This document shows, in pieces, positions 10,209 through 46,999 of a stretch of DNA of 46,999 bases. Source of the DNA: a virus; the IMG/VR virus record IMGVR_UViG_3300009503_000043, positions 1 through 46,999 of that record. One strand, written 5' to 3'. A program made the translations under genes and the position numbers. A model generated the notes under the pieces. The model saw nothing but the letters and a program-made list of their open reading frames with translations. It did not search any database and had not been told where the DNA came from. Each line of letters begins with the position of its first letter. Position 1 is the first letter of the stretch.

Positions 10209-10982
10209 TTAATCTACACCTCCTTCCGGAACAGGGTGCTGTAAGAGCCACCATCCCTCATCGAGCTGCACCGGCTCGAGTGGATGATCAGGACTTGTGA
10301 TCAGCCCTTGGTAATGTGGATCTTTGATATAGACCAAGCGCTGATTATCAAGCGCGACTACCTTCTCCGCAAAGACTGCGTGGTTGTACAAAGTGACGGG
10401 CCTATTAGGGCGACGGACAAGATGTTCAAATTTTTCTGGTAGCCTCCAGCTCCAATAGTCCTCCTCTTCTTTAAATTTGGAGATATGTTTAACCTCCAAA
10501 TGACCCTGATAGAGAGGTTTGGCATCAGACTCCATGTAAAGACTGTCAAACAAGACCCTCCTATCCTCACGAAACGTACAGTCCTCCGCTCTTGCGGCCA
10601 TGACAAAAGCCGGGCTATCCACGAGTGTTCCTCCCCATATCACCCAATATGGGCGGATGTCTTCATTAACTGCTCCCAATCGCTCACCCGACCACGATTG
10701 GGGGTCCTCAACGAAACGTATGTTGGGATGATTCGGCTTTTCGTGGTAGCCAAGAGTATAAATTTCCACGTCCTCTAGGAGGACGTCAAGGTAAGGCTGG
10801 AAAGGAGCTGCATTCATCAGCTCTCGAAGAGGCCGCGAGGCGAGCCAGCTATAATTATTGCCGGCTCTTGTTGACTCGAGCCTCCCAAACAGTCTAGCTC
10901 TGTCCAACTTGAAAAATCCAGGGATCGGTGGAATAAAGACTTCTTTCTCACCATCCGACGTGATTTGATGAATTTTAATCAT
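10209..10982 (-). CDS. Unknown 257-residue protein
   Basis: The start at 10982 (MIKIHQITSDG) is chosen because AAAAGGAGGTAATAAA lies directly upstream and the ATG forms an ATGA overlap with the stop of the repeat-protein gene at 10979. A longer in-frame start at 11021 has no support. The protein is rich in Trp, Pro and acidic residues (for example GWWLLQHPVPEGG near the end), suggesting a compact beta-rich enzyme or binding protein. No motif I can assign. It is translated together with the repeat protein upstream. Confidence 0.65.
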   Translation of the reverse strand: MIKIHQITSDGEKEVFIPPIPGFFKLDRARLFGRLESTRAGNNYSWLASRPLRELMNAAPFQPYLDVLLEDVEIYTLGYHEKPNHPNIRFVEDPQSWSGERLGAVNEDIRPYWVIWGGTLVDSPAFVMAARAEDCTFREDRRVLFDSLYMESDAKPLYQGHLEVKHISKFKEEEDYWSWRLPEKFEHLVRRPNRPVTLYNHAVFAEKVVALDNQRLVYIKDPHYQGLITSPDHPLEPVQLDEGWWLLQHPVPEGGVD

Positions 10983-11422
10983 TTTATTACCTCCTTTTTT
11001 GTTAAGTTTTCTTTTTTCCACTGCTCGAACTTTTCGTCTGTGAATCCGACGGCGCTACGGCCGACATATTCCCCGCTTACATACCACTCTAGATTACCAT
11101 TCCAACTCTCAACTGCGGGGCCGTCCAATCTATGCAATTTACCTTCTACCCACCATTCTTTAGTGCCGTTTGCGTATTCAACGGCTGGTCCATTGAGACG
11201 ATGCCTTTTGTCGTTTACCCACCACTCCCGGCGATCGAGCACATCAAAATATTCTGGTCCATCGATTCCGTATAGATTATCCGCTTTATACCATACAGCT
11301 GTATTATGGATAATCTCAATTGCTGGTCCGTCTTCTTGGTGCAGCTCTCCGTTTTCATTAAAGTGCCTTGTGATGATACGGGTCTCTCTTACAGTAACGA
11401 TTCGGTTGTTGTCTACTTCCAT
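10979..11422 (-). CDS. H-R-x-D-G-P-A repeat protein with C-terminal cap (MORN-variant-like), copy 1
   Basis: 147 residues with four repeats of about 23 residues (LHQEDGPA, LYGIDGPE, RHRLNGPA, LHRLDGPA), each followed by G-x-K/L-E-W-W/Y-V. It closes with the family cap VGRSAVGFTDEKFEQWKKENL. The repeats resemble the 'MORN repeat variant' of the YwqK family, short beta-hairpins forming a solenoid; that assignment is by eye. It is the first gene of the minus operon, with GGAGGTAAAA before the ATG and a promoter at 11457-11485. Promoter, leader and about 70 bases of coding sequence nearly match the gene at 45213-45848. Function unknown; a protein-binding role is plausible. Confidence 0.8.
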   Translation of the reverse strand: MEVDNNRIVTVRETRIITRHFNENGELHQEDGPAIEIIHNTAVWYKADNLYGIDGPEYFDVLDRREWWVNDKRHRLNGPAVEYANGTKEWWVEGKLHRLDGPAVESWNGNLEWYVSGEYVGRSAVGFTDEKFEQWKKENLTKKEVIK

Positions 11423-11456
11423 TTTTACCTCCTTTATTTTATCTTATTACATATAT

Positions 11457-11485
11457 AATATAATACATTTATCTTCAAAAGGCAA
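11457..11485 (-). promoter_or_regulatory. Promoter of the minus-strand operon (copy A of a repeated promoter)
   Basis: Reading the minus strand, TTGCCT (11485-11480), a 17-base spacer and TATATT (11462-11457) form a sigma70-like promoter. The sequence continues ATATATGTAATAAGATAAAATAAAGGAGG into the repeat-protein gene. The stretch from -35 to ribosome binding site is almost identical to 45847-45912, and its core matches 12217-12255. Confidence 0.65.
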
Positions 11486-11492
11486 CCCCTAT

Positions 11493-11520
11493 TTGTGGGT
11501 TGTGGATTCTTTTGTATAAT
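11493..11520 (+). promoter_or_regulatory. Candidate promoter for the lytic transglycosylase gene
   Basis: TTGTGG (11493-11498), 16-base spacer, TATAAT (11515-11520). The -10 ends only 8 bases before the ATG at 11529 and there is no ribosome binding site, so the transcript would be leaderless or nearly so. It is divergent from the minus promoter at 11457-11485. Confidence 0.45.
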
Positions 11521-11528
11521 ACTATATT

Positions 11529-12212: not shown

Positions 12213-12216
12213 GTGG

Positions 12217-12245
12217 TTGATTTTTTTGAATAGATTTATTATATT
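12217..12245 (+). promoter_or_regulatory. Promoter of the HTH/sigma operon (copy C of a repeated promoter)
   Basis: TTGATT (12217-12222), 17-base spacer, TATATT (12240-12245), continuing ATATATGTGATAAGA. Spacing and -10 are the same as in the two minus-strand copies at 11457 and 45884, and the string TATTATATTATATATGT is shared by all three. It would transcribe the tandem-HTH genes, the sigma factor and probably queC onward. Confidence 0.65.
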
Positions 12246-12277
12246 ATATATGTGATAAGAAGAAAAGAGGCAATTTT

Positions 12278-13573: not shown

Positions 13574-13624
13574 TTAATAGTATAATATTATTTTCTTTAA
13601 ATCCAAAACAAGCGGAGGTATATA

Positions 13625-15768: not shown

Positions 15769-18438
15769 GTGAAAGAATATCTACCTTCTCATCACCAGGA
15801 CAACTGTCAAGCTTGTCCTTTAGCACAGCTTGGGAGAACACAGGTTGTGCATTCCGTATTACCGAAAGATGCAGAGGTTCTTCTTATAGGAGAAGCTCCA
15901 GGCGAGCAAGAAGATAAACAAGGAAGGCCGTTTGTTGGTCCTGCAGGCGATGAACTAACCTCCGCTTTACTGTCTGCGGGGTTCACAAGAGACGCAGTTG
16001 CTGTAGTGAATGTTTGTAGTTGTCGCCCGCCGGCAAATCGCGCGCCTACGCGAGAGGAGGCGAAGGCCTGCTTTGAGTTTCTTGATAAAGAAATACAAGA
16101 ACTGAAGCCAAAGGTTATCGTTACACTGGGTACAACCGCATTAGCAAGTTTGATTCCTGGCGCAAGAGGCATTACGCAGATGCGCGGTCGATGGTTTGAG
16201 AGTGAGAGATATAATTGTTTAATTCTCCCTACTTACCACCCAGCTTATGTTCTCCCCATGCGCCATCCCGAAGCAAAATCGTTATTGATCGGGGATCTAA
16301 AGAAAGTAAAAGACTATTTAGATGGTAAGATAACAGTAAATGCGCGGCCAGAGTTTACACAGTACCAGATAAAGACGGAGAGACAATTAGATTGGCTTGT
16401 TGATGTTTTGAATAACGTTGATGTTTTCTCCTGTGATACAGAGACGACGAGTCTTAACCACCTCCTCGCCAAAATTTTTATCATTTCCTTCTCTTGGGCG
16501 GATGCAGTCGGTGCGTTTATTGATACGCGCTATATTAATTTCCCTGAGTCGGTATTATGGGAGAAACTGAAACTAATATTGGGAAATCCAGCGAAGAAAA
16601 TTTTTCAAAATGGGAGTTTCGATATTAAGGTCTTTATGCGCTACGGCATTAAGGTGCGTAATTACTATTGTGATACATTATTAATGCACCATCTCTTGCA
16701 AGAAAATAGCAATCACGGACTGGATATTCTTGCTATGGAGTATACAAATTATGCTGGGTACTCCATTCCATTGGATCAGTATGTGACACAGCATAAACAT
16801 GACGACGACTTTGACTACTCGCAGATACCGATTGAATTGCTTCATCCCTATGCTGTTCTTGATGCAATTGTGACACTCGCTTCTTACAACGCAATGCTCC
16901 CGTTGATTTACGAAGAGCATCTAGATGAGTTGCTCTTTACTCGTGTGATGCCCGCACAGAAATTATTGATGCAGGTTGAGTATTATGGGGTAACCATTGA
17001 CAGAGAGTATTTAACTCAGTTGCAGCAGCGCTACGAAAAGGATTTGAAGCACAAGATGGATCTTATTATGCGCGTTCCCGAAGTTATGAACTACAAGAAC
17101 AGCAAGGAGATTGCTATAAGAAGAGAGCTTGAACGAACGTATGCGCAACGTTTTGTTAAATCAGCAAAGTTTCAGCGCGATTTCCCGACCTTTCAAAGTT
17201 ATTTTGATTCATTACCAGAACACAAGAAGACGTTCGTTTTTAATCCTCAGTCTCCTACTCAGCTAAGAGAACTGCTCATCGATCGAATGCACTTACCTGT
17301 ATTGAAATCGAAAACTAGCTCAAAGGGAGAAAATCCCAGTCTTGACAAATCCGTCTTAGAGGAGTACGCAAAGACAAACAAGTTTTGCTCATTATTAGCT
17401 GAACACCGGAGCTTAGCAGGTTTGAAGGCTAAGTTTGTCGACGGGATGCTTGAGGCAAGCGCTATTGATGGCAAGGCTCACACGGAGTACTTACTCTTTG
17501 GTACAGTAACGGGGCGTCCGTCAAGCCGCAATCCAAATCTTAATAACATACCAACGACATCTACCTCAGCTGAGATAAAGAATCAGTTCATACCAGACAG
17601 TCCCGATGACTGGATTGTTGAAGTTGACGGATCACAAATGGAATTTCGTACCTGGTGTAATTACAGCCAAGATCCTCAAATGTTACACGATCTTGAACAA
17701 GGTGTAGATATACATAAGCTTATGGCTGCTGCAGGTAAGGGTGTAAATATTCCGAAGGGGGATTTGTCAGATCAGGTTTATAAAGAGATTGTAAAAGATG
17801 TTACAAAAGCACAGCGTCAAGAAGCAAAAGCAATTGTTTTTGGAGTCATGTATGGGCGCAGTTCAAGAAGTGTGGCGGCACAACTCGGCATCAGTGAAGC
17901 TGCGGCTCAAAAAGTAGTAGATAAGTTTTTTGGGCGCTATCCTGTAGCAAGAACGTGGATATTGAAGACGCAGGGGTTTGCACGCGTTAATGGGTATGTT
18001 GTTAATCTGTTCGGGCGGAGACGCCGGCTGTTGAAGATTAATTCGAAGATACCCGCTGAGCGGGAGGAGGCACTGAGACAAGCGGTTAATAGTCCTATCC
18101 AAGGCGGAGCTTCTGATATAGTTCTCGGGGCTGGTATACGTATTTACAGGAGATTTGCAGAAGTGGCGCGTACAGAGGGCCTTCTTACATTCCCTGAAAA
18201 TCGTTTAATTCTAACGGTTTACGACTCGCTGTGCTATACTCTCCAAGACAAAAGCGCAGATAGGGGAATTGAGATAATATATGAAGAGATGACGCGACAA
18301 ACAGAGAAAATTACCGTTAAGTTAGATGCATCGATAAAAATCGGAAAGCGTTGGGGTGAAACATTAGAGTTTCCTAAGCCAACACCTAATTGGCGTGAGC
18401 TATATTATGAATTCATACAAAAAGGGAGGTCAGTATGA
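15769..18438 (+). CDS. polA: Family-4 uracil-DNA glycosylase / 3'-5' exonuclease / PolA DNA polymerase fusion
   Basis: 889 residues, GTG start. Residues 1-185 are a family-4 UDG with [4Fe-4S] ligands C13, C16, C85 and C101, motif GEAPGEQED (41-49) and TYHPAYVL. Residues ~210-390 are a proofreading exonuclease with CDTETTSL (~221), FQNGSFD (~280) and YAVLDAIVT (~361). Residues ~450-889 are a family A polymerase with motif A VEVDGSQMEF (~617), motif B RQEAKAIVFGVMYG (~684) and motif C LTVYDSLCY (~815). Motif C has YDS where bacterial PolA has HDE. It is the probable replicative polymerase. The fused UDG could scan for or stall at uracil in the template. It follows the amidotransferase by 7 bases. 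Confidence 0.92.
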   Translation: MKEYLPSHHQDNCQACPLAQLGRTQVVHSVLPKDAEVLLIGEAPGEQEDKQGRPFVGPAGDELTSALLSAGFTRDAVAVVNVCSCRPPANRAPTREEAKACFEFLDKEIQELKPKVIVTLGTTALASLIPGARGITQMRGRWFESERYNCLILPTYHPAYVLPMRHPEAKSLLIGDLKKVKDYLDGKITVNARPEFTQYQIKTERQLDWLVDVLNNVDVFSCDTETTSLNHLLAKIFIISFSWADAVGAFIDTRYINFPESVLWEKLKLILGNPAKKIFQNGSFDIKVFMRYGIKVRNYYCDTLLMHHLLQENSNHGLDILAMEYTNYAGYSIPLDQYVTQHKHDDDFDYSQIPIELLHPYAVLDAIVTLASYNAMLPLIYEEHLDELLFTRVMPAQKLLMQVEYYGVTIDREYLTQLQQRYEKDLKHKMDLIMRVPEVMNYKNSKEIAIRRELERTYAQRFVKSAKFQRDFPTFQSYFDSLPEHKKTFVFNPQSPTQLRELLIDRMHLPVLKSKTSSKGENPSLDKSVLEEYAKTNKFCSLLAEHRSLAGLKAKFVDGMLEASAIDGKAHTEYLLFGTVTGRPSSRNPNLNNIPTTSTSAEIKNQFIPDSPDDWIVEVDGSQMEFRTWCNYSQDPQMLHDLEQGVDIHKLMAAAGKGVNIPKGDLSDQVYKEIVKDVTKAQRQEAKAIVFGVMYGRSSRSVAAQLGISEAAAQKVVDKFFGRYPVARTWILKTQGFARVNGYVVNLFGRRRRLLKINSKIPAEREEALRQAVNSPIQGGASDIVLGAGIRIYRRFAEVARTEGLLTFPENRLILTVYDSLCYTLQDKSADRGIEIIYEEMTRQTEKITVKLDASIKIGKRWGETLEFPKPTPNWRELYYEFIQKGRSV

Positions 18439-21279: not shown

Positions 21280-23424
21280 ATGAGCCTCAATCAAAGTATA
21301 CGCAGTTTTTACAGTATTACGAAGAGTATGCAGCAGAAAATTGATGCTGTAAACAGTATGCTCAAGAAGGGAAACGCCCCTATTCGTAAGACCGCCTCAA
21401 AAACCGCAGTGAGAGAGATATTGCTGAAGGAAGCTTTAGCAAGCAAACGGTTCAGCAGTATCGGCTATGGTTTGTATAAAGAAGCGGATACGGCTGACGA
21501 CTACGGGCGAATTTGGGTCAAAAAAGTATTCGAGGATCCAAAGACGGGCAGCAAGGAAGAGTGGCTTGTTGTGTACTCTGACGATAAGGATGACATAATC
21601 CGCCAGCTTGCAAGCGAGCAATGGAGGGGATTGCGTAAGCAAGCGGGTTACGATGATGATATACGCAAAAGGTGCCCCTACTGCGAGGTTGAAATGGTCG
21701 AGACTCCCGATGGAGAAGATTTAGAGTGTCCGGAATGTGGATATACAAGAAGCAAGCGAGCTTCACTTCAGAGGGCTGCAGGTGTCGTTGAAGAAGAAGT
21801 TGAGGTAGAAGTTGAACCTGAGGTTGAACCAGAGGTTGAACCTGACATAGAACCAGAAGTTGAGCCTGATGTTGAACCCGATATAGAACCAAATGAGGAA
21901 CCAAATGAACGTCCGAGTCCGTTCAGATTTCCTCACATACATCCAGAAGAAGCGCCCAGACCAAAGGCATTTCAGCGTTTAGCGCACATTGTAAGAGAGG
22001 ATGGAAAGTGGTATGTTTACAACAAGGACAAGTCGAAGAGGCTGAGCAAGGGGTATAAGGATCGAAAGGATGCCGTTAAGAGATTACAACAGATAGAGTA
22101 TTTTAAACATCGTAAAGCAAGTTTGGAGAAAGAAGCTGTTCATCCTCCAGGAAGAAAGCACGAGGTGGAAGAGTTGAAGAGACTAAATATACCAGAGGGA
22201 GAGGCTTTTGCCATCTCCTGGAAACAGTATAATCAGTATGGCGAACCAAAACATCATACTGAATACTACAAGAAACATCACAGAAAGAAAGAAAAGAAGA
22301 GCGCGCGCGAGGAGTTGGTTGATTTGCTCATTAAACAAGCTTCTACCGAGGTTATCGATGTTGAAGGAACGAAGACATGGTTTACCGATGGAGAGGTAAG
22401 TCGTCTTGATGGACCTGCGATTATACATACTGATGGAAGCAAAGAGTGGTGGGTAGACGGCAACTTTGTTGGCGCTTCTATAAAAGGCTTTACGGACGCA
22501 GATTTTGAACAGTGGAAGAAAGCACACTTCGGTAGATCTTCTTCCGCTAAGATGGCGGCTTCTCAAGTAAAGCCGAGTGACATACCTCTTGCTCCTGGAA
22601 TAAAAGAGAAAGAGATAGAGATGCGAGAGAGTGGCGGTCAGCAAAATGCTACAGTCTCTGTAACTTTTAACGATGCAGAAAAGGGGCTGGATTTCTATTT
22701 AAACAATATAGCAGAGGCTCCGAAGCCAGCAGAAGTGCCACCAATGGTTAGCCAGCAGCTAGCGCAAGCTCAGACACCTCCTCCACCACCGCAGCCGCAG
22801 CCACAGAAACAACAATCAACGATTCTCACTTCGAGAACGGGGATTCCGGAGGTAATGCTTTATCGCGACTATATTAACGGCATAGTAAGATACAGTTATG
22901 TAGATGAGTATGGTGATGAACAATTTGTTCCGATGCCAAAAATAGAGCGAAAAATAGGAAGCCTTATACAGAGGCCAGATAGACATGGAATGATGCGAGT
23001 AGCTGGCTTTATCGATCGTAAGTTTCTGCCAAAAGAGGATCTGATAGCAAAGTTAGCAGAAGATGTTTCCGATACAGTACCGCCAATGGCCTGGACAACA
23101 GGAAATGGTAACGATGTTGGTAGACCCGCTGGAGCCGGAGCACCATTGCCCCAGCAGCCAGAGCTGAAGAAAGATCAGCAAGAAGATGAGAAGGTTTTGT
23201 ACGATAGCGAGGAAGCAGAAGAGGAGGGGCCGGAGTATCTAGTAAAAGTGCATCCGGATGATAAAAGTGTGACTGTCAAGTTTGAAGAGAATCCAGAGGA
23301 AGAGAATCTACATAAAGCTTTAGAACAATCACCTCCTCCACCTCCGTCAACACCGCCAATGCCGATCGTTAACCAGCCTGAGACGAACAATGCAGGCGTT
23401 CCCAATTCAAACGTGGAGTTTTAA
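21280..23424 (+). CDS. Large multidomain head-region protein with zinc ribbon, EP repeats and an embedded H-R-x-D-G-P-A module
   Basis: 714 residues. In order: a basic helical N-terminus; a zinc ribbon CPYCEVEM...CPECGY (~res 128-150); an acidic E-V-E-P repeat tract (~172-210); a KWYVYNKDKSKRLSKGY...RLQQIEYFKH module (~240-278) of a kind I associate with large-phage structural proteins; a basic stretch; one complete repeat-and-cap module (SRLDGPA ... GFTDADFEQWKKAHF, ~360-412); a Pro/Gln-rich region; and an acidic, Pro-rich end. It has five [I/L]-x-K-x-A motifs (IRKTA, LLKEA, LYKEA, LEKEA, LIKQA), possibly protease sites. First gene of the morphogenesis block; probably an internal or minor virion protein. 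Confidence 0.6.
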   Translation: MSLNQSIRSFYSITKSMQQKIDAVNSMLKKGNAPIRKTASKTAVREILLKEALASKRFSSIGYGLYKEADTADDYGRIWVKKVFEDPKTGSKEEWLVVYSDDKDDIIRQLASEQWRGLRKQAGYDDDIRKRCPYCEVEMVETPDGEDLECPECGYTRSKRASLQRAAGVVEEEVEVEVEPEVEPEVEPDIEPEVEPDVEPDIEPNEEPNERPSPFRFPHIHPEEAPRPKAFQRLAHIVREDGKWYVYNKDKSKRLSKGYKDRKDAVKRLQQIEYFKHRKASLEKEAVHPPGRKHEVEELKRLNIPEGEAFAISWKQYNQYGEPKHHTEYYKKHHRKKEKKSAREELVDLLIKQASTEVIDVEGTKTWFTDGEVSRLDGPAIIHTDGSKEWWVDGNFVGASIKGFTDADFEQWKKAHFGRSSSAKMAASQVKPSDIPLAPGIKEKEIEMRESGGQQNATVSVTFNDAEKGLDFYLNNIAEAPKPAEVPPMVSQQLAQAQTPPPPPQPQPQKQQSTILTSRTGIPEVMLYRDYINGIVRYSYVDEYGDEQFVPMPKIERKIGSLIQRPDRHGMMRVAGFIDRKFLPKEDLIAKLAEDVSDTVPPMAWTTGNGNDVGRPAGAGAPLPQQPELKKDQQEDEKVLYDSEEAEEEGPEYLVKVHPDDKSVTVKFEENPEEENLHKALEQSPPPPPSTPPMPIVNQPETNNAGVPNSNVEF
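21793..21909 (+). repeat. E-V-E-P / D-I-E-P coding repeat tract
   Basis: About ten tandem units of 12 bases (gtt-gaa-cct-gag type) encode an acidic, proline-containing, extended spacer inside the 714-residue protein. Such tracts form stiff disordered linkers and change length easily by slippage. Confidence 0.8.
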
Positions 23425-24588
23425 ATGATTATACCACCAATTGACGGCCCAATGAAAGAACACAAACCCGACTGGTTTAATGAACAGGAAATAAGAGAAG
23501 CTGCTAAACCGATTCTAAAGGCTCAAATAAGAAAGTCAGCTTCTTCAAGGGGCAGTGAGCCTATTACTGCACAGTATTTCTGTTCAGATTGTCGGAAGGT
23601 TTATCAAGCAGACGATAAGAGACTGGTTTTTCAGAAGAACGCTTCAAAGAATGCTTCATTAACTTGTCCACGGTGTGGAAAAGAGCTACGCATTTACAGG
23701 CAGGTTCGAAAGATTGAGCATGCGCAGCCCGCCGAGAGACAGATAGTAAAGAAAGCCGCTCTAGGTGATGCTAAAGGACAAACCTATAATACATATGTCG
23801 ATCAGGTGTATTACTGGAAAGCCATTGATGCTCTTCAGAGCCACGTGGCTCGTATGGGATTTCCTCAAGCGAGGGTACGCTATATCTCAAGCGAGCACAC
23901 AAAACAAGCTGGTCAAGCTTATCCGACCCTTAACACGATTAAATGTGCGATTCAATGGGAATATGCTAAAAAGTCGAATGCGATATCTTTTGCAACCGCA
24001 AAAGTATATGCCTCTGTTTCTTTTGATGAGGCTGGCCATATCAATCTTCCTACCGTATTTACGAATGCACAAGGTGTACAGTTCCCGTTTGATAAGCAGA
24101 ATTTAGAAGCACAGCAAGGTATGCAACGAGAACCGAATGTGGGAATGAGATTTGATCAGCGTGGTGGACAGGTTCCTGTTACTTATCGCGAAAGAGAGAT
24201 ATGGCAATTTAGAGCGGCTGCACAACATCGAGGAAATAAGCTTATAAAGCAAGCATCTAGTACCGCTAAAGAGGAAGTCCATGAAGTAAACGGTCAGCTG
24301 CATAATACAAAAGGACCAGCGGTTGTACATAAAGACGGCTCCAAGGAATACTGGTTTGAGGGACAGTTGCATAGAGAGGATGGCCCTGCTTTAGAAGGGA
24401 GTGACGGCTTCCAGGCTTGGTATAAACATGGATCCCTGCATAATACAAATGGTCCTGCTGTTGTATATGCAAATGGTGATAAGGAATACTGGGTTGATGG
24501 AAGGTTTGTTCGCAAGGTAAGTGCAACTCAGGAGAAGAAAGCCGATTTTGGCGATTATATTGAACACAAAGACTTAAGGCAGATGTAG
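23425..24588 (+). CDS. Head-region protein with zinc ribbon and C-terminal H-R-x-D-G-P-A-type repeats
   Basis: 387 residues, starting directly after the previous stop with GGAG upstream. A zinc ribbon is formed by FCSDCRKVY and LTCPRCGKEL (~res 52-90). A middle domain of about 150 residues is alpha/beta and unknown. The C-terminal ~90 residues hold three repeats (LHNTKGPA, LHREDGPA, LHNTNGPA) with the usual G-S/D-K-E-Y-W spacing. The family cap is not intact: after the last repeat it reads GRFVRKVSATQEKK. Three [I/L]-x-K-x-A motifs (IRKSA, IVKKA, LIKQA) are present, the last one just before the repeat domain. Likely a virion component, sharing layout with its upstream neighbour. Confidence 0.6.
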   Translation: MIIPPIDGPMKEHKPDWFNEQEIREAAKPILKAQIRKSASSRGSEPITAQYFCSDCRKVYQADDKRLVFQKNASKNASLTCPRCGKELRIYRQVRKIEHAQPAERQIVKKAALGDAKGQTYNTYVDQVYYWKAIDALQSHVARMGFPQARVRYISSEHTKQAGQAYPTLNTIKCAIQWEYAKKSNAISFATAKVYASVSFDEAGHINLPTVFTNAQGVQFPFDKQNLEAQQGMQREPNVGMRFDQRGGQVPVTYREREIWQFRAAAQHRGNKLIKQASSTAKEEVHEVNGQLHNTKGPAVVHKDGSKEYWFEGQLHREDGPALEGSDGFQAWYKHGSLHNTNGPAVVYANGDKEYWVDGRFVRKVSATQEKKADFGDYIEHKDLRQM

Positions 24589-24589
24589 A

Positions 24590-26590
24590 ATGGGTGCTAT
24601 TCAGAGACGATTCTTTAAGAAACAAGCCGATGGGAGTTGGACTCCAAATCTGACTCAACCACAGCAACCACAGACAGCTCCTACGCCGTCACAAACTGTG
24701 CAGCCTGGACAAAAGATGATGAATATGCAGACTGGAGAAACTTATAATGTCGTTCGTCAGGTTCCAGGAAAGGGAACAGTAGTCCAGAACGCGCAGACAA
24801 ATCAACAAGGAATAATTCCTGAGAACCAGCCAAATCCCAATCTCGTCAATGTAGTTACAAAACAAACATTGGTGGATGCTTTAGCTAAGCAGGCTACGGA
24901 CGGCACATCGAAAACTTCCGATCTTGACAAGGTACTTAAGGGAGTACTAGATGAGGTACTACCTGATTCCGAGCGCAATATTCCTGCTCAAGAGTTGCGA
25001 GAAGCGGAACAAAACTTTGATTCCAGTCTCGACGACTTAGAGGAGATTCATAGAAGTCCTGATGAGGCAACTATTGACGAAGAACAAGATGAAATAGCCG
25101 ATAGATTGGATATGGCAGAAAAAGATCTTGAGGGTCCTTGGGATAGTGATCATGAAGAACAGGAAATTAACAAACTTGTTGATATGAGCAAACGTGATAT
25201 TAATTATTTGAAAGATGAGTTACCTGATACAAAACCAGAACAGGTTCAAGAAGAGAGAGATGAGGTCTTGAAAAACTTATCACAAGCTAAAGAAGATGCT
25301 CAGGAAAAAGAGAAGAAAACTTCTCCCGCAGCTGCGAAAATAGTGGATGTTCTCGGAGTAAAGAGTTCTTGGGAGCAGAAAAAGAAAGAGCTTTTGGCAA
25401 AACAGGCGGCAGATCCTTATACTGTCGGTTATACAAACAAGCGCAGGGTTGATGAGAAATTGAAGAAAGAAGCCGCTTACAGTGCTCCTGACCCCAGACA
25501 CATCAAGGATATTCATGGACACGATCCCGCAACAAATGCTCCAGTCCGAGAAACCCGCGACATACGAATAAGGCTCGATAATTTCCCAATTGGGGAATCA
25601 GAGGCAGATTCTAGTGGACTCCCGACTGATCCGACGAAGCAGAAGGGGTATCGAATCCCGTTTAGAGAGATGGATGAAAAGCAGGTAAGAGAAAGAGAGC
25701 ATTTTCCCAATCAAGATAAATTACCGCTTTACAATATGAAGAGAGAGGAAATAAGTCAGTATTTAAAGAACTCCAATCCTGAGAGAAATTACGGTATTGC
25801 AAATTCTACGGAACCGCATGAAGAAGAAGCTATAAAACAAGAAAAGAACAAGTTCAGTACAGAAGAGCTTGAGTTGAGGGAAATAATCGGTATTTCCAAA
25901 GTGGCGGACAAGGAAGAGTCTGCAGAGGAAGAGGAAGGCGTGAAGGAGGGCCCGATTCAGTTTAAGGTTCTGCAGAAGGCTCCGCCAATAAAAGAATATG
26001 AGGAGCCTGCTCTTATAGGGCCAGCGAAAGATAAGGTAAAGGAAGCGATAACAAAGTTGCACAATGCTCAGAAGGAGCTGGCCGATATTAAAGCAGAGCT
26101 AGCAGAGAAATTAAGACCTCTGCAAGAACAGTCACTTGAAATAACGAAAGAGTATAATCCTAAAATAAAGAGTGCAGAAGACAGTGTAGCATCTTATCTG
26201 AAGATGTTGTACGAGCAGATCAGCGAAACAGAAAGTAAAGTTGTTCACTACGAAGATTTTATAATCGCTCGTGTAGAGCGTATGACCAACCCAACGAAGA
26301 CTCCAACGTTAAACGAGGTGATTGAGAGAGCAGGTCAAATAAGCAAGGACCTGCAGAGTCAGATTATCGAGATCAAGAAGAAATTGCAGGAAGAGAACAT
26401 GTCTTCCGTTCTTGAGCGATATCTTTACAAGTATCCAATTTCTAAATCTCATGAGAAGAAGATTACCTCCTCTTTGAGTTCTGCCGATCCTGTTTTTTCT
26501 ATTATTTCCTGGCTAAGAGGGGTAATAAAGAACTTCCTGGATATAAATGAGATGTTAGATCAGGAATTGGAAGAACAAGACGCTTTTTGA
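24590..26590 (+). CDS. Large acidic coiled-coil head-region protein
   Basis: 666 residues, starting 1 base after the previous stop. The N-terminus is Gln/Pro-rich, with long charged helices over about residues 110-230 and 480-600 and polar linkers in between. No enzymatic motif or membrane segment is visible. It carries four [I/L]-x-K-x-A motifs (LAKQA twice, LKKEA, ISKVA) spaced along the chain, plus FKKQA near the N-terminus. Size, charge, coiled coils and position before the terminase suggest an internal head, scaffold-like or ejected protein that is cut during head maturation. That role is inference. Confidence 0.55.
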   Translation: MGAIQRRFFKKQADGSWTPNLTQPQQPQTAPTPSQTVQPGQKMMNMQTGETYNVVRQVPGKGTVVQNAQTNQQGIIPENQPNPNLVNVVTKQTLVDALAKQATDGTSKTSDLDKVLKGVLDEVLPDSERNIPAQELREAEQNFDSSLDDLEEIHRSPDEATIDEEQDEIADRLDMAEKDLEGPWDSDHEEQEINKLVDMSKRDINYLKDELPDTKPEQVQEERDEVLKNLSQAKEDAQEKEKKTSPAAAKIVDVLGVKSSWEQKKKELLAKQAADPYTVGYTNKRRVDEKLKKEAAYSAPDPRHIKDIHGHDPATNAPVRETRDIRIRLDNFPIGESEADSSGLPTDPTKQKGYRIPFREMDEKQVREREHFPNQDKLPLYNMKREEISQYLKNSNPERNYGIANSTEPHEEEAIKQEKNKFSTEELELREIIGISKVADKEESAEEEEGVKEGPIQFKVLQKAPPIKEYEEPALIGPAKDKVKEAITKLHNAQKELADIKAELAEKLRPLQEQSLEITKEYNPKIKSAEDSVASYLKMLYEQISETESKVVHYEDFIIARVERMTNPTKTPTLNEVIERAGQISKDLQSQIIEIKKKLQEENMSSVLERYLYKYPISKSHEKKITSSLSSADPVFSIISWLRGVIKNFLDINEMLDQELEEQDAF

Positions 26591-32830: not shown

Positions 32831-33334
32831 ATGCGTAGACGAGCGAATACATATCAAGATACAACACCTGATACTGGAAGACAACCAGAGGATATGGACT
32901 TTGCGCAACCTTATGACGATGAAGAGTTGCGCAGAGGCGGGCCTAACAAACAACCATATCAGTTTAATACCGACTGGTATGCTTATGCAGATGAAGATCA
33001 GCTGGAAGACAGTAGTCCTAGTAATAGATACGACAATGACATCCGACTTGTTAGTTCGCTTAAACTTGTATCTTCACAGGATCCTAGCTTTGATTATGAT
33101 ACTACAAGGAACAATTGGCTTTGGGAATATGAACCTACTGCGCCTGCACTAGATAACAGTACAGATAGACAAATCTATGATAGTGATAAGAATCCTGATG
33201 TCGGAGAACAAAACTGGGAGCATGATATAAGGGAAGATCTCGAACATATGGATGAGGAAGACAGGAGGAATTTACAGCTATGGACAGCAGGTCTTGATTG
33301 GTATAATGTCTTGGTTAAGAAAGGTGTTGGGTAA
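32831..33334 (+). CDS. Acidic protein upstream of the portal gene
   Basis: 167 residues. ATG at 32831 is chosen, 4 bases after the previous stop, instead of long in-frame extensions from 32708 that would overlap the previous gene by 119 bases. The protein is very rich in Asp, Asn and Tyr, apparently disordered, with WLWEYEP in the middle and DWYNVLVKK at the end. The protein at 37651 has a similar composition (DWLWGEP) and a similar end (SWYESLTKR). It overlaps the portal ATG by one base. Possible role as a head-assembly adaptor; inferred only from place. Confidence 0.55.
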   Translation: MRRRANTYQDTTPDTGRQPEDMDFAQPYDDEELRRGGPNKQPYQFNTDWYAYADEDQLEDSSPSNRYDNDIRLVSSLKLVSSQDPSFDYDTTRNNWLWEYEPTAPALDNSTDRQIYDSDKNPDVGEQNWEHDIREDLEHMDEEDRRNLQLWTAGLDWYNVLVKKGVG

Positions 33335-36625: not shown

Positions 36626-37654
36626 ATGCCTAAAATTTCAGAAGTCCGAGAACCCAAGTCGGTTACCGCTATAAAAAGTCTCGCTTTAAAGAACACAATA
36701 ATTGAATTATTGAGGCACCAAAAGATAAACTACATCTCCGAAATCGCCAAGTCACTTGATCTGAAGGTTTCCGATGTAAAGAAAATTCTTGTCGATATAA
36801 AGCGAGAAGGCTACGTAACTGAGTTTTCGAATCATGATATAGTTGAACTTAGAACAATTTTACCGAAAGCTCCTCCACAGCGTATTGATGTGGCTAAATT
36901 GACCAGTGGAGGGCACATCAAGATAGGCGTAGTATCAGACAATCATCTTGCTTCGCAGTATGAGCGCATGGACATACTCAATGCTCTATATGATATCTTT
37001 GCTCAAGAAGGCGTAACTGAGGTTTATCAAACAGGGAATATAGTTGAAGGTGAAGCCGAGTTTAACATGTACGATTTAAAGGTCACTGGATTATCGAGGC
37101 AGACTGATTACCTGATTGACAACTTTCCCGTAAGAAAAGGCATTGTTACGAAGTTTATAACAGGAGACGATCATGAGGGCTGGTGGACGCAGAGAGAGAA
37201 AATCGATGTGGGGAGATACATTGAGAATGAAGCGATGAGGCAAGGCAGGGAGGATTTAAAATATCTCGGCTACCTTGAGGCAGATGTAGAATTTAAGACC
37301 TCGCGCGGCGCTGTGATAATGAGGCTCTTTCATCCGAGTGGAGGAGTGCCATATGCTATATCTTACCCTGTGCAGAAGATTGTTGAAAGCTATACAAATG
37401 ATAAACCACACATTCTTCTTTGTGGGCATTATCATCAAGCAGGGTATTTGCATATAAGAAATGTGCATACGATCTTAACCGCAACAACAAAAGATCAGGA
37501 CGTGTATTTGAGAAAGAAACATCTTGCACCACAACTAGGCGGGTGGATTCTAGAGTTTCATCTTAGTCCTGATGGTACTGTTCCAAGATTTAAGCAGGAG
37601 TTTATTAGCTTTTTTGATAGTAACTATTACAAGAGTAGGGGATTTTACAGATGA
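36626..37654 (+). CDS. Winged-helix plus metallophosphoesterase fusion
   Basis: 342 residues. The first ~75 residues form a winged helix (IIELLRHQKINYISEIAKSL, then KKILVDIKREGYV). From ~95 on there is a calcineurin-like domain with GVVSDNHLAS (motif I), YQTGNIVEG (motif II, Asn where Asp is usual), ITGDDHEGW (motif III, in place of G-N-H-D), RLFHPSGG and LLCGHYHQAG (motif V). Two of five metal motifs therefore deviate. The winged helix suggests it acts on DNA, for example as a nuclease or a DNA-end phosphatase. It sits inside the head gene block, so a packaging link is possible. Confidence 0.75.
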   Translation: MPKISEVREPKSVTAIKSLALKNTIIELLRHQKINYISEIAKSLDLKVSDVKKILVDIKREGYVTEFSNHDIVELRTILPKAPPQRIDVAKLTSGGHIKIGVVSDNHLASQYERMDILNALYDIFAQEGVTEVYQTGNIVEGEAEFNMYDLKVTGLSRQTDYLIDNFPVRKGIVTKFITGDDHEGWWTQREKIDVGRYIENEAMRQGREDLKYLGYLEADVEFKTSRGAVIMRLFHPSGGVPYAISYPVQKIVESYTNDKPHILLCGHYHQAGYLHIRNVHTILTATTKDQDVYLRKKHLAPQLGGWILEFHLSPDGTVPRFKQEFISFFDSNYYKSRGFYR

Positions 37655-38103
37655 GAACTTTTGTCACAAAATGGGAAGACGGTCAGTATTATATTGGGCA
37701 AAAACCTGTTACTAAAGAAATTTTGACCCACTTGCTCGATACTGTGAAGGTTGCAGAGAAAGAGCAATGGTTTGAGCGGCTTGATAAAGAAGGGCATAAC
37801 ATTATTCAAGATACTTCACTTGTAAAATTTGCAACAAGCGGCATAACGACAGATCCATATAGTTATACTACAGGTAGTGATATTGACGAAGATGCACAGG
37901 AGTTTAACGACAGATCGACAGTGTTTGATCAGGAAGATGCAACTTATATGGACAAAGGCCACGACTGGCTTTGGGGTGAACCGAATCCCCATGATTTTCC
38001 ATCGACAATGGTTTACCAGCAGTTAGACGAAAAACAACCCGCAGCAAATACAGCTCGTGCTAGCAAAGAAGAAAGTTGGTATGAAAGTCTTACAAAGCGA
38101 TGA
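37651..38103 (+). CDS. Unknown acidic protein
   Basis: 150 residues, ATGA overlap with the phosphoesterase gene, GGGGA upstream. The first third is ordered (KWEDGQYYIGQKPVTKEILTH). The rest is Asp/Thr/Tyr-rich and probably disordered, with HDWLWGEPNPHDF and a C-terminal SWYESLTKR. The protein at 32831 has matching short motifs, and the gene at 40780 starts with a similar NWYTLLTSK. One LVKFA motif is present. It is probably a small head-assembly or virion component. Confidence 0.5.
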   Translation: MRTFVTKWEDGQYYIGQKPVTKEILTHLLDTVKVAEKEQWFERLDKEGHNIIQDTSLVKFATSGITTDPYSYTTGSDIDEDAQEFNDRSTVFDQEDATYMDKGHDWLWGEPNPHDFPSTMVYQQLDEKQPAANTARASKEESWYESLTKR

Positions 38104-38237
38104 TGAAGTTAATTAAATTTCTATTGCTTTTCATTCTTCCCGTTTTCGCCCTTTTCATAATAATTCATAATTTACTAAAGATAACCCCAAACTCCTTCTT
38201 TCTCAGAGAATTCGACGAATTTGACATTTTTAAGTAG
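38100..38237 (+). CDS. 45-residue single-span membrane protein
   Basis: ATG at 38100 overlaps the previous stop (ATGA). The product is one hydrophobic helix (FLLLFILPVFALFIIIH) with a basic N-terminus (MMKLIKF) and an acidic C-terminus (LREFDEFDIFK). The charge pattern gives N-in, C-out topology. Size and shape would suit a small holin or antiholin or a membrane regulator, but it is far from the endolysin gene. It is too short for further inference. Confidence 0.55.
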   Translation: MMKLIKFLLLFILPVFALFIIIHNLLKITPNSFFLREFDEFDIFK

Positions 38238-38279
38238 GTAAATACCTACCTCTTACCTTCTTTGTGTAATATAATATAG
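38234..38279 (+). promoter_or_regulatory. Inverted repeat and -10-like region before the phosphatase gene
   Basis: A perfect inverted repeat GTAGGTA-AA-TACCTAC (38234-38249) is followed by TTTGTGTAATATAATATAG, which ends at the ATG (38280). The next gene has no ribosome binding site. The -10-like TAATAT lies 7 bases before the ATG, so a leaderless transcript under an operator is possible. Confidence 0.35.
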
Positions 38280-38990
38280 ATGATTATAATAGGCGATCTT
38301 CATGGACATATCGATCTTTATCGAGAGATCAAACGGCAATTTCCCTTAGAAACTCTTGTAACTGTTGGGGATTATGTGGATTCACAAAAGACTACTCGAA
38401 ATCAACAGTTAAGGCTTGTAAAAGAATTGTTGCAAGATGTAGAAAGTGGGAAAACTATTGCCCTTCTCGGCAACCATGAGTTGAGTTATTTATATCCTTC
38501 GAGTCTCCGAGCATCGGGCTATGAGCAGGATTTTGCAGATCAACTCAAACCTTATTTTTCGGAGATGCGGAGTAAGTTTGTTAAGTACCATATTCTCGAG
38601 CAGCACAAAATACTTATTACCCATGCTGGATTATCACTTGATCTTTTGTTCGGTGGGCTTACTGATTTAGACTTGTTGCAGCAGTTCCTCTCTGACGCAA
38701 GTACCGATCTCGATTCTTGCCTTTACTGGATCGGTCGAGCAAGAGGCGGAGAGCACGAAGTGGGCGGAATTTTCTGGTGTGACTATAATTATGAATTCAG
38801 TGCGATACCTGGAATAAAACAAGTATTTGGGCACACTCCGTCGAAGCGAGGTATTCTCAAGCTCGATGAAGAGAATTATTGCATCGACTGCTTGGAGTAC
38901 TCGAAGAAAAAGCAAGTATTGGAAATTGATTCAGAAGGCATCATGAGTATACGTTCGCTGCAAAAGAATTTTAATAAAAGGAGCCGCTAA
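38280..38990 (+). CDS. PPP-family protein phosphatase-like enzyme
   Basis: 236 residues. All PPP signatures are present: IIGDLHGH (res 3-10), VTVGDYVDSQ (~34), LLGNHELSY (~62), LITHAGLSLD (~114) and QVFGHTPSK (~182). This is the lambda-phosphatase type of Ser/Thr (or Tyr) protein phosphatase, or a diadenosine tetraphosphatase of the same fold. It may modify host proteins during infection. No ribosome binding site is visible, the same as in the gene at 11529. The following repeat-protein gene starts 1 base after it, so the two are likely co-expressed. Confidence 0.85.
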   Translation: MIIIGDLHGHIDLYREIKRQFPLETLVTVGDYVDSQKTTRNQQLRLVKELLQDVESGKTIALLGNHELSYLYPSSLRASGYEQDFADQLKPYFSEMRSKFVKYHILEQHKILITHAGLSLDLLFGGLTDLDLLQQFLSDASTDLDSCLYWIGRARGGEHEVGGIFWCDYNYEFSAIPGIKQVFGHTPSKRGILKLDEENYCIDCLEYSKKKQVLEIDSEGIMSIRSLQKNFNKRSR

Positions 38991-38991: not shown

Positions 38992-39555
38992 ATGAGTGCA
39001 CCTGTTTTTGACGACATAATGATCGATGCTAATGGAACTATCACATATCGTAACGAAAATGGCTTGTTACACCGGCTCGATGGCCCAGCAGTTGGACGTG
39101 CCAACGGAGACAAGGAGTGGTGGGTAAATGGCAAAAGGCATCGTCTCGATGGACCTGCAATAGAAAGAGGAGATGGTAGCAGGGCCTGGTATAAAGATGG
39201 TGTTTTGCATCGAGAAGATGGTCCCGCAATCGAGGATTCCAAAGGAGACAAGCGTTGGTATATTAATGGGCAGCTGCACAGAGATAACGGGCCCGCGCTT
39301 GAGTATAAAGATGGAACAAAAGCTTGGTGTAAACATGGCCTTTTCCATCGTTTGGATGGACCTGCTATTGAATTTTCCGACGGCAGCAAAGAGTGGTTTG
39401 TGGAGGGTAAACATCATCGCTTGGATGGACCTGCTATTGAGAATAGAGATGGATATAAAGCATGGTGGGTGAATGGTAAGTTTGTTGGAAGTACCGGCGG
39501 AATTGGCGGATTTACAGATGAGGAGTTTGAGAAATGGAAGAAAGAAAACCTATAA
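38992..39555 (+). CDS. H-R-x-D-G-P-A repeat protein with cap, copy 2
   Basis: 187 residues, AAAAGGAGCCGCTAAG before the ATG. Six repeats of about 23 residues (LHRLDGPA, RHRLDGPA, LHREDGPA, LHRDNGPA, FHRLDGPA, HHRLDGPA) are joined by G-D/S-K-E/R-W-W/Y segments, then the cap VGSTGGIGGFTDEEFEKWKKENL. Its fifth repeat is almost the same in DNA as the second repeat of the next gene. It is coupled to the phosphatase gene upstream. The regular hairpins should form an elongated solenoid with aromatic and charged faces suited to binding another protein. Confidence 0.8.
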   Translation: MSAPVFDDIMIDANGTITYRNENGLLHRLDGPAVGRANGDKEWWVNGKRHRLDGPAIERGDGSRAWYKDGVLHREDGPAIEDSKGDKRWYINGQLHRDNGPALEYKDGTKAWCKHGLFHRLDGPAIEFSDGSKEWFVEGKHHRLDGPAIENRDGYKAWWVNGKFVGSTGGIGGFTDEEFEKWKKENL

Positions 39556-39878
39556 AAGCTCCGCCTGGTCAGGTGCTATTTCCCTACATGGAAATCGACG
39601 ACGAGGGAACAATTAAATTCTATGACGAAGAGAGGAGATTACATCGCCTGGATGGGCCTGCTATTGAATGGTTAGATGGCACCAGGATGTGGTGTGAGCA
39701 TGGCCTTTTCCATCGCTTGGATGGACCGGCCATTGAATTTTCCGATGGTAGTAAAGAGTGGTTTGTAAAGGGTAATCTTATAGGTAGCTCTATGAGTGGC
39801 TTTACAGATGAAGATTTTACAAAGTGGAGGGAGAAATATGATAAGCGTGGTGACGAGATATTTCACGTATCAGATTAG
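39534..39878 (+). CDS. H-R-x-D-G-P-A repeat protein with cap, copy 3 (short)
   Basis: 114 residues. The start lies inside the cap codons of the preceding gene (22-base overlap) with GAGGAG 8 bases upstream. An N-terminal ~35-residue segment (EIDDEGTIKFYDEE) is followed by two repeats (LHRLDGPA, FHRLDGPA) and the cap IGSSMSGFTDEDFTKWREKY. About 75 bases around 39700-39775 nearly repeat 39345-39420 in the upstream gene, showing recent copying between neighbours. Confidence 0.75.
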   Translation: MEERKPIKAPPGQVLFPYMEIDDEGTIKFYDEERRLHRLDGPAIEWLDGTRMWCEHGLFHRLDGPAIEFSDGSKEWFVKGNLIGSSMSGFTDEDFTKWREKYDKRGDEIFHVSD

Positions 39879-43620: not shown

Positions 43621-43654
43621 CCGAATTAAAGTTTAACTAAAGGAGAAAGAAGAA

Positions 43655-44590: not shown

Positions 44591-44621
44591 TTAGTTAGCG
44601 ACCCCACTTTGCGGTAGTAAT

Positions 44622-45202: not shown

Positions 45203-45212
45203 TTCTACCTCC

Positions 45213-45848
45213 TTATTGATTTGTTAAATTTTCTCTCTTCCACTGCTCGAAATCTTTGTCAGTGAATCCTTCTAAGGACCTGCCTACAAGTTCACCATTC
45301 ACCCACCATTCTTTAGCACCGTTACGCCGTATAACGGCAGGCCCATCTAAGCGATGCCGCTTACCATTTACATACCACCATTTATTACCATTCCAACTCT
45401 CAATAGCGGGGCCGTCCAATCTATGCAATTTACCTTCTACCCACCATTCTTTAGAGCCGCTCGCATATTCAGCGGCTGGACCATCTAATCTGTGTAACTT
45501 ACCTTTTTGATACCACTCCTTAGTGCCGCTTGCATATTCAATGGCTGGTCCATCGAGACGGTGGAGTTTGCCTTTTTGATACCATTCTTTAGTGCCAGTT
45601 GCATACTCGACGGCTGGTCCGTCAAGTCGATGCCTTTTACCGTTTACCCACCATTCCTTATCGCCGTTCCACCATTCAATGGCGGGGCCGTCTAAACGGT
45701 GACGGTTGCCTTCTACAAACCACTCCTTAGTACCGGCAGCCTGTATGAGCGCAGGACCATCCAACCTGTGTAGGTTGCCTTTCTTATTGAAATATCTTAC
45801 GTTACCCCAGCTATCCTTCCGCGCTTCCAAAGTCTCATTTGATTCCAT
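45213..45848 (-). CDS. H-R-x-D-G-P-A repeat protein with cap, copy 4 (longest)
   Basis: 211 residues with seven repeats of 23 residues at very even spacing (RHRLDGPA or LHRLDGPA in all), then the cap VGRSLEGFTDKDFEQWKRENL. Several repeats are near-copies at DNA level, for example the YQKGK units. About 70 bases around 45384-45454 match the gene at 10979 almost exactly, as does its whole promoter and leader. GGAGGTAAAA precedes the ATG. The variable positions lie after D-G-P-A (x-E-x-x-x-G), while the H-R-L-D-G-P-A core is fixed, as expected if the repeats present a changing surface on a fixed scaffold. Confidence 0.85.
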   Translation of the reverse strand: MESNETLEARKDSWGNVRYFNKKGNLHRLDGPALIQAAGTKEWFVEGNRHRLDGPAIEWWNGDKEWWVNGKRHRLDGPAVEYATGTKEWYQKGKLHRLDGPAIEYASGTKEWYQKGKLHRLDGPAAEYASGSKEWWVEGKLHRLDGPAIESWNGNKWWYVNGKRHRLDGPAVIRRNGAKEWWVNGELVGRSLEGFTDKDFEQWKRENLTNQ

Positions 45849-45883
45849 TTTTACCTCCTTTATTTTATCTTATTTACATATAT

Positions 45884-45912
45884 AATATAATATATTTATC
45901 TTCAAAAAGCAA
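45884..45912 (-). promoter_or_regulatory. Promoter of repeat-protein copy 4 (copy B of the repeated promoter)
   Basis: Minus strand: TTGCTT (45912-45907), 17-base spacer, TATATT (45889-45884), then ATATATGTAAATAAGATAAA and GGAGG. Over about 68 bases it differs from the copy at 11423-11490 at only a few positions. The -35 lies in the last codons of the neighbouring repeat gene. Confidence 0.65.
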
Positions 45913-46231
45913 CCCCACATAATTTCGGATGTTTTTGCTTCCACTGCTCGAAATCTTTGTCTGTGAATCCATCAAATGTGCAGCCTATAAACTCATTGTT
46001 TACCCACCATTCTTTATCGCCATTAATCCACTCTCTTGCAGGGCCATCAAGACGATGGAGTTTGCCATGCGCATACCAAGCCCTATCACCGTTTATCCGC
46101 TCAACAGCGGGTTCGTTAAGTCTGTGGCGTCTTTCTTGTTCATCGTAATAAAATATATCTCCCTTAACACTCATTTCTACATCATAAAAAGCTGGTTTTT
46201 CTGTACGGAATTTTAAATTAAAAATTTTCAT
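45902..46231 (-). CDS. H-R-x-D-G-P-A repeat protein with cap, copy 5
   Basis: 109 residues from ATG at 46231, chosen because it forms an ATGA overlap with the stop of the upstream gene and lines up with the start of that gene's product (MKIFNLKFR versus MARLKFRPA). A start at 46252 would overlap by 25 bases. It has an N-terminal strand segment, two repeats (RHRLNEPA, where Gly is replaced by Glu, and LHRLDGPA), and the cap IGCTFDGFTDKDFEQWKQKHP. It is part of a run of at least three coupled repeat genes read from the right-hand edge. Confidence 0.75.
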   Translation of the reverse strand: MKIFNLKFRTEKPAFYDVEMSVKGDIFYYDEQERRHRLNEPAVERINGDRAWYAHGKLHRLDGPAREWINGDKEWWVNNEFIGCTFDGFTDKDFEQWKQKHPKLCGVAF

Positions 46232-46593
46232 AGTCTGTATTTCTTTTTCCATCGTTCGAAGTCTTTAGCCGTAAAGCCTTCTAAGGACTTGCCTACAAGT
46301 TCACCATTCACCCACCATTCTTTCCTCCCGTCAGTCCTCTCAATTGCAGGTCCGTCTAATCTGTGCAAAAAGCCATTCAGGTGCCACTCTTTTGTACCAT
46401 CAATGTAGGTTAGAGCAGGGCCGTCAAGACGATGTAACTTATTATTTTGATACCACTCCTCGTAGCCGTTAGTATGTATAACAGCAGGTCCATCTTCTCG
46501 GTGGAGCTGACCTTTCTCGTTGTAGTATTTTACAGTTCCATATTCATCAACTTTTATACTAGGTGAAGCAGGCCTAAATTTTAATCTAGCCAT
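46228..46593 (-). CDS. H-R-x-D-G-P-A repeat protein with cap, copy 6
   Basis: 121 residues. ATG at 46593 (MARLKFRPASP) lies 1 base after the stop of the upstream gene; the longer in-frame start at 46668 would overlap it by 74 bases. It has an N-terminal ~30 residues (VDEYGTVKYYNEKG), three repeats (LHREDGPA, LHRLDGPA, LHRLDGPA), then the cap VGKSLEGFTAKDFERWKKKYRL. The N-terminal segment is shared in style with copies 3 and 5. Confidence 0.75.
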   Translation of the reverse strand: MARLKFRPASPSIKVDEYGTVKYYNEKGQLHREDGPAVIHTNGYEEWYQNNKLHRLDGPALTYIDGTKEWHLNGFLHRLDGPAIERTDGRKEWWVNGELVGKSLEGFTAKDFERWKKKYRL

Positions 46594-46594
46594 T

Positions 46595-46999
46595 TCATTT
46601 TTCTGACTGGTGTTCTTTCTTCCACTGCTCGAACTTCTCGTTTGAGAATCCTGATTGTGTATCATCAATAAATACGCCGTTTACATACCAAGCCTTAAAA
46701 CCATTGGCATACACGACGGCAGGCCCGTCAAGACGATGTCTTTTACCGTTTACCCACCATTCTTTGTAGCCGCAAGCTCCTTCGTATGCAGGCCCGTCAA
46801 GACGGTGCAGGTGGTTGTTTACATACCATTCTTTAGCTCCGTTGGCCCACTCAACGGCAGGACCGTCCTCTCTGTGCAGCATACCATTTACATACCAGGC
46901 CTTTACTCCGCCAATGCTTTCATAAGCGGGGCCGTCCTCTCTGTGTAACTTATCATCTCGATACCACGCTTTAGTTCCATCAGCCCACTCTTCTGCAGG
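46595..46999 (-). CDS. H-R-x-D-G-P-A repeat protein with cap, copy 7 (5' end beyond window)
   Basis: The frame is open from base 46999 to TGA at 46595, so the ATG at 46882 is internal and the gene begins outside the window; 134 residues are visible. It shows the end of one unit (PAEEWADGTKAWY), four further repeats (LHREDGPA twice, LHRLDGPA, RHRLDGPA) and a cap variant IDDTQSGFSNEKFEQWKKEHQ. It is the upstream-most visible gene of the right-hand repeat-gene run. Confidence 0.8.
   Translation of the reverse strand, partial: PAEEWADGTKAWYRDDKLHREDGPAYESIGGVKAWYVNGMLHREDGPAVEWANGAKEWYVNNHLHRLDGPAYEGACGYKEWWVNGKRHRLDGPAVVYANGFKAWYVNGVFIDDTQSGFSNEKFEQWKKEHQSEK

What the first reader, a model, noticed from the sequence alone, without database searches (positions are those of the whole stretch)
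10979..46999. A dispersed family of capped 23-residue repeat proteins in one phage
At least 32 repeats with core H-R-x-D-G-P-A and a following G-x-K-E-W-W-V-N-G occur in nine genes. Seven are stand-alone (10979, 38992, 39534, 45213, 45902, 46228, 46595); two are built into probable virion proteins (21280, 23425). Eight of the nine loci keep a C-terminal cap of the form [V/I]-G-x-S-x-x-G-F-T-D-x-D-F-E-Q-W-K-K, so the unit is a defined module with a variable number of repeats. The repeats recall the MORN-variant/YwqK family, which includes predicted antitoxins, but a multi-gene, capped, phage-borne system of this size has no function known to me. Fixed core and variable outer positions suggest a set of binders, for example against host defence or surface proteins.
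Basis: partly seen in the sequence, partly recalled or inferred. Interest (0 to 1): 0.85.

Follow-up and report, generated by a model that had tools for sequence, protein, structure and literature searches.

The report
Viral family of MORN-like repeat proteins
This environmental phage carries nine copies of a small stackable protein module whose predicted shape matches MORN repeats; the module recurs across many unrelated phages and giant viruses and is most likely an exchangeable set of protein-binding parts whose targets are unknown.

Summary
Nine loci carry 34 HMM-detected 23-residue units (none in 50 shuffled proteomes), and eight of nine keep the GFTDxDFEQWKK cap. AlphaFold2 predicts a regular beta solenoid (pLDDT 96) whose cap is a C-terminal helix. 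The nearest solved structures are MORN repeats (T. brucei MORN1, E 1e-9), although no Pfam MORN or MORN_2 model matches.

The family is not peculiar to this phage. At least 62 distinct IMG/VR loci, several phage records, giant viruses, a few plasmids and some bacteria carry it, often as tandem arrays of paralogs. Within a virus the paralogs share a C-terminal tail; different viruses have different tails. In the window, silent sites between copies are saturated while repeat and cap residues are kept, so the set is old and under purifying selection rather than a recent expansion or artefact.

It is accessory. Related phages of about 130 kb keep homologues of the two host genes (21280, 23425), terminase, portal and capsid but lack every repeat.

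Most likely these are diversified MORN-type protein-binding modules at the phage-host interface. Targets are unknown, and virion location and the antitoxin analogy are unproven. It is a new variant of a known repeat kind.

The parts
10979..11422 (-). Stand-alone repeat protein, 147 aa, 4 HMM units (one degenerate), capped; units 2-3 are closest to units 5-6 of the 45213 gene
21280..23424 (+). 714-aa protein upstream of terminase with an internal one-to-two-unit module plus cap (residues about 358-416)
   Evidence: the 947-aa homologue in the related phage lacks the module
22354..22527 (+). Module inside 21280, beginning just after the linker motif LIKQA|S
23425..24588 (+). 387-aa protein: zinc-ribbon/alpha-beta N-terminal part, low-confidence linker 268-282, then a 3-unit module (residues 293-361) without the standard cap
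   Evidence: AF2; relative keeps the N-terminal part and has another C-terminal domain
24226..24516 (+). Module inside 23425
   Evidence: pLDDT about 91-97
38992..39555 (+). Stand-alone repeat protein, 6 units, capped, in a variable cargo site between the 35260 gene and the 40765/41075 genes
39534..39878 (+). Stand-alone repeat protein, 2 units, capped; unit 2 is 86% identical in DNA to unit 5 of 38992
45213..45848 (-). Stand-alone repeat protein, 7 units, capped; structure predicted at pLDDT 96.2
45902..46252 (-). Stand-alone repeat protein, 2 units, capped
46228..46593 (-). Stand-alone repeat protein, 3 units, capped (start corrected from 46668)
46595..46999 (-). Stand-alone repeat protein, at least 5 units, capped, cut by the contig end

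Best explanation
The locus set is a family of MORN-type beta-solenoid modules. Each 23-residue unit adds one short-stranded rung held by invariant H-R-x-D-G-P-A, G and W residues, the array is closed by a C-terminal helix (the cap), and repeat number sets length (shown by sequence and prediction). The family is accessory, old and maintained by selection in this phage (shown by comparison). Inferred: the proteins work by binding other proteins along the solenoid, as solved MORN proteins do; the variable outer residues set different targets; the stand-alone copies act on host proteins during infection, while the two fused copies present the same module on conserved phage proteins. The cap is inferred to be a shared folding or docking element, because it is kept among old paralogs of one virus but replaced in other viruses.
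For: Regular solenoid with helix 197-207 as cap, pLDDT 96.2, pTM 0.86. Foldseek to T. brucei and T. gondii MORN1, E 1e-9 to 1e-7, and to junctophilins and MORN4, repeats described as protein-protein interaction modules (PMC7725318). Invariant core and variable positions 3, 8, 10, 11, 14, 16, 19, 22 over 530 distinct units. Silent-site identity between genes 0.40 against 0.39 expected for units and 0.50 against 0.48 for caps, so silent sites are saturated while protein positions are kept. Tail similarity within a virus 0.56 against 0.20 between viruses. No widely recurrent neighbour family across distinct viral loci and presence in phages, giant viruses, plasmids and bacteria fit exchangeable accessory binders. 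Relatives of the phage lack them at conserved loci.
Against: No target, interaction or expression is known. TM-scores to MORN1 are only about 0.46-0.52 with large rmsd, so overall curvature differs. The units lack the canonical GxG and YEGEW motifs and no Pfam MORN or MORN_2 model matches. Module genes show no excess variation between two samples, so there is no sign of a present arms race. Single-copy relatives sit upstream of apr-like genes in some alphaproteobacteria, which points to non-conflict uses as well. Variable surface residues may reflect weak constraint instead of diversified binding.
Confidence: 0.5

Rival explanations
1. Virion-associated set: the modules are carried in the particle, fused to conserved morphogenesis-region proteins or docked through the shared cap, perhaps released by the head protease and delivered with the DNA.
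For: Two copies are fused to conserved genes directly upstream of terminase. Copies 38992 and 39534 lie between a possible head-maturation gene and the capsid gene, and the relative G003 has its one capped module directly upstream of portal. Both fused modules begin shortly after LIKQA|S in linker sequence. hxKxA motifs are enriched in 21280, 23425 and 24590 (17 against about 2.8 expected) and one lies at the capsid protein N-terminus.
Against: No PHROG or fold assigns 21280 or 23425 to the virion. The protease match covers only 45 residues. hxKxA enrichment is weaker in the relatives. The 10979 gene and the 45213-46595 array are on the opposite strand, outside the morphogenesis operon.
Confidence: 0.2
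2. Antitoxin or immunity proteins resembling YwqK: the phage carries an array that neutralises host toxins or abortive-infection effectors.
For: MORN_2 proteins include YwqK, paired with the LXG toxin YwqJ (PMC8321402; that YwqK is MORN_2 is from memory). The unit piece W-Y-x-N-G-K resembles MORN_2 (recalled consensus). Arrays of diverse paralogs fit immunity sets.
Against: No MORN_2 match at E<=1, no PADLOC match, no toxin family in the scanned neighbours, no recurrent partner.
Confidence: 0.12
3. Non-adaptive repeat proliferation: unequal crossing-over and intragenomic copying spread an easily folding repeat without function.
For: Some recent exchange between 10979 and 45213 and between 38992 and 39534; assembly breaks inside repeats.
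Against: Silent sites are saturated while the protein signature and cap are kept and all frames are open; no differences in the stand-alone copies between samples.
Confidence: 0.08
4. Membrane or lipid binding, the classical idea for MORN repeats.
For: Historical assumption for MORN proteins.
Against: Re-evaluation found no good evidence of lipid binding for MORN1 and protein-protein roles instead (PMC7725318). No transmembrane or signal segment is evident by eye in the stand-alone copies.
Confidence: 0.05

Closest known systems
MORN repeats (T. brucei/T. gondii MORN1, junctophilin, MORN4)
   Same: 23-residue period, serial beta hairpins, aromatic and glycine core, solenoid detected by Foldseek at E 1e-9
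   Different: Signature is H-R-x-D-G-P-A...G...W instead of GxG...G...YEGEW; no sequence-profile match; helical C-terminal cap
MORN_2 / YwqK (PF07661)
   Same: Similar W/Y-Y-x-N-G-K piece and period (by eye, from a recalled consensus)
   Different: No HMM match at E<=1; no toxin gene found beside it
DUF6745 (PF20530)
   Same: A short stretch of its profile (positions about 63-84 of 206) matches the unit; E 1e-5 in window proteins, up to 2e-16 in a relative
   Different: Below curated cut-off in the window; the rest of the domain is absent
Uncharacterised repeat proteins of Atu_ph07, Celeribacter phage P12053L, uncultured Caudovirales, Powai lake megavirus, mimivirus R871
   Same: Same repeat by sequence or predicted fold, 28-51% identity
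   Different: C-terminal tails differ from the window cap where inspected (P12053L, Atu_ph07)
Contig IMGVR_UViG_3300013125_000008 (G003)
   Same: Related phage with the same repeat and the same cap GKSDNGFTDEDFEKWKQ
   Different: Only one such gene found, with about 96 residues after the cap, placed upstream of portal

Membership tests
MORN repeat | 23-residue repeat of serial beta hairpins forming a solenoid | tested here: met
   719 unit spacings are exactly 23, next commonest 24 with 39; AF2 solenoid; Foldseek to MORN1 E 1.3e-9
MORN repeat | GxG, G10 and YEGEW sequence motifs (PMC7725318) | tested here: not met
   GPA and G...W in place of GxG and YEGEW
MORN repeat | Match to a Pfam MORN model, or sequence-profile link to solved MORN proteins | tested here: not met
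   None at E<=1; profile of 38 homologues finds no PDB sequence
MORN_2 / YwqK antitoxin | PF07661 match | tested here: not met
MORN_2 / YwqK antitoxin | Neighbouring cognate toxin gene | tested here: not met
   No toxin family among the ten window genes scanned, including neighbours of the modules
MORN_2 / YwqK antitoxin | Neutralises a toxin | not testable with these tools
   needs co-expression
DUF6745 | Score above the curated cut-off over the domain | tested here: not met
   25.5 against 27 bits, about 20 of 206 positions
Viral HRxDGPA repeat family (unnamed) | H-R-x-D-G-P-A-x(5)-G-x(3)-W-x(3)-G unit in tandem with a C-terminal tail | tested here: met

The most novel reading that the evidence does not exclude
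The virus-specific C-terminal helix is a common docking tag and the repeats are interchangeable binding surfaces. Each virus would then run a 'one dock, many binders' set of MORN-like proteins, some carried on cleavable particle proteins and delivered with the genome.
Probability: 0.12. Interest if true: 0.8.

Novelty: new variant of a known kind. Interest (0 to 1): 0.5.

Why it matters
A large, almost unannotated family of MORN-fold proteins is shared by phages, giant viruses and some bacteria, is missed by the standard family models, and appears to break assemblies. The finding that paralogs share a tail within a virus but not between viruses gives a testable idea about how such sets are deployed. 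An HMM for the unit would let these genes be counted and tied to hosts and defence systems.

Tried and rejected
Assembly artefact: rejected, because the genes recur at 99.8-99.97% identity in contigs from other samples. Recent expansion or ongoing homogenisation as the whole story: rejected by silent-site saturation, though two pairs show more recent exchange. Hypervariability between samples: none seen in the stand-alone genes. Conserved operon partner: none widely shared among 251 neighbour proteins. Searches that led nowhere: PF07661 and PF20530 in host genomes, where the controls were silent too; profile search of PDB sequences; Foldseek of the 23425 model; PADLOC; Rfam and tRNA scans.

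Full report
What is there. The window is one complete IMG/VR contig of 46,999 bases. An HMM of the 23-residue unit finds 34 units in them; a strict pattern gives 31 complete units, one further unit is cut by the contig end and at least one is degenerate. Fifty shuffles of the window proteome give no hit. Eight loci carry the cap; 23425 does not. The same phage is present in another contig of 71,944 bases, 99.97% identical over the first 10.5 kb compared and 99.8-99.9% elsewhere, and in a third contig at 99.8%, so the genes are real. The window and the 71.9-kb contig both end inside repeat genes. This fits a published observation that MORN-type repeat proteins are 37 times more frequent in long-read than in assembled marine viral data (PMC9238414).

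Fold. AlphaFold2, given 38 aligned homologues, predicts the 45213 product as a regular solenoid of short strands with a C-terminal helix at 197-207, which is the cap (mean pLDDT 96.2). Foldseek's best solved matches are MORN1 of Trypanosoma and Toxoplasma, then junctophilins and MORN4. No Pfam MORN or MORN_2 model matches, and a sequence profile finds no PDB chain. The solved MORN repeat is defined by 23 residues and by GxG, G10 and YEGEW motifs (PMC7725318); the period and hairpin fold are met here, the motifs are not. Works like a MORN array: likely. Member of the Pfam families: not met.

Spread. The first-stage view of a special system in one phage is too narrow. A scan of viral contigs finds 253 confirmed stretches; the best 71 loci hold arrays of up to a dozen or more paralogs, and 34 of 62 distinct loci have three or more. 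Annotated carriers include Agrobacterium phage Atu_ph07 and Celeribacter phage P12053L; predicted structures of megavirus, mimivirus and Orpheovirus proteins match; a few plasmids and bacterial genomes carry it, in Duganella beside what look by eye like mobilisation genes. Each virus tends to have its own tail after the last unit: normalised similarity 0.56 within and 0.20 between viruses. Many tails start like a helix cap (155 of 199 against 74 for shuffled tails).

Age and selection. At codons with the same amino acid, third positions agree between genes of the window at 0.40 (expected from codon use 0.39), and at 0.50 in caps (expected 0.48). The copies are therefore old, and repeat core and cap are kept by selection. 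Two pairs show later exchange: 10979 units 2-3 with 45213 units 5-6, and 38992 unit 5 with 39534 unit 2. Two samples show no difference in the stand-alone genes, although only about three would be expected at the background rate.

Accessory nature. Relatives were found by the gene at 33334 (portal by PHROG). The 130-kb relatives have homologues of 21280, 23425, 24590, terminase, portal and capsid but no repeat at all. In their 23425 homologue the N-terminal 237 residues are kept and the C-terminal part is another domain with an S-W-C-T motif; a similar W-C-T-A domain is fused in front of the same repeats in contigs L030 and L073 (likeness judged by eye). In their 21280 homologue the conserved blocks occur in a different order and the module is missing. 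The nearest capped relative, G003, has one module gene, upstream of portal. The stand-alone copies 38992 and 39534 lie in a site whose content differs in every relative compared.

Mechanism. Shown: modular sequence, predicted solenoid, variable number, cap helix, accessory distribution, maintained sequence. Inferred: protein binding along the solenoid with copy-specific targets, acting at the phage-host interface. In 23425 the module is a separate confident domain (pLDDT about 91-97) after a low-confidence linker, and in both fused cases the module starts shortly after LIKQAS. Motifs of the form hxKxA are enriched in the three genes upstream of terminase (17 against about 2.8) and one sits near the capsid N-terminus. 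That could be a head-protease site, which would let the module be freed inside the particle; it is a lead only, because the protease match is 45 residues long and the enrichment is weaker in relatives.

Verdict. The claim of a unique system is wrong, and virion location, antitoxin role and host-defence targets remain open. It is a new variant of a known repeat kind, of moderate interest for its breadth and its virus-specific tails.

Noticed in passing
21280-26590 (three genes upstream of terminase), capsid gene 43655: Recurrent hxKxA motifs (IRKTA, LLKEA, LIKQA, LAKQA, ISKEA) far above shuffled expectation in three adjacent genes and at the capsid N-terminus; possible head-protease cleavage sites.
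   Followed up: partly
L115:10418-11968 and L030:2480-3709: An apparently shared domain with S/R-W-C-T motif replaces the repeat module in the 23425 homologue of a relative and is fused in front of the same repeats in other contigs; no Pfam match.
   Followed up: partly
L122 and L141: A single repeat gene lies upstream of genes that look by sequence like aprM-aprB-aprA in two alphaproteobacterial genomes, a conserved chromosomal setting.
   Followed up: no
L134, L135, L137, L138, L142: A Neisseriaceae MAG carries long tandem arrays of divergent repeat genes (11 in a row in L134).
   Followed up: no
L119-L121: A Lokiarchaeota MAG contig (JABXKB010000001.1) is packed with tandem repeat genes sharing one tail; possibly viral sequence in the bin.
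   Followed up: no
L128:4056-8403: Duganella array of six repeat genes sits between genes that look like mobC and a relaxase.
   Followed up: no
window 15769-18438: DNA polymerase A fused to an N-terminal uracil-DNA glycosylase domain; a GroEL-like gene follows at 18735.
   Followed up: no
window 36626-38990: Two metallophosphoesterase genes lie just upstream of the 38992 repeat gene; a phosphatase-like gene also neighbours repeats in L024 and L056.
   Followed up: no
L081:6203-12406: A 2067-aa viral protein joins a NUDIX domain, a PBECR5 nuclease-like match and 17 repeats.
   Followed up: no
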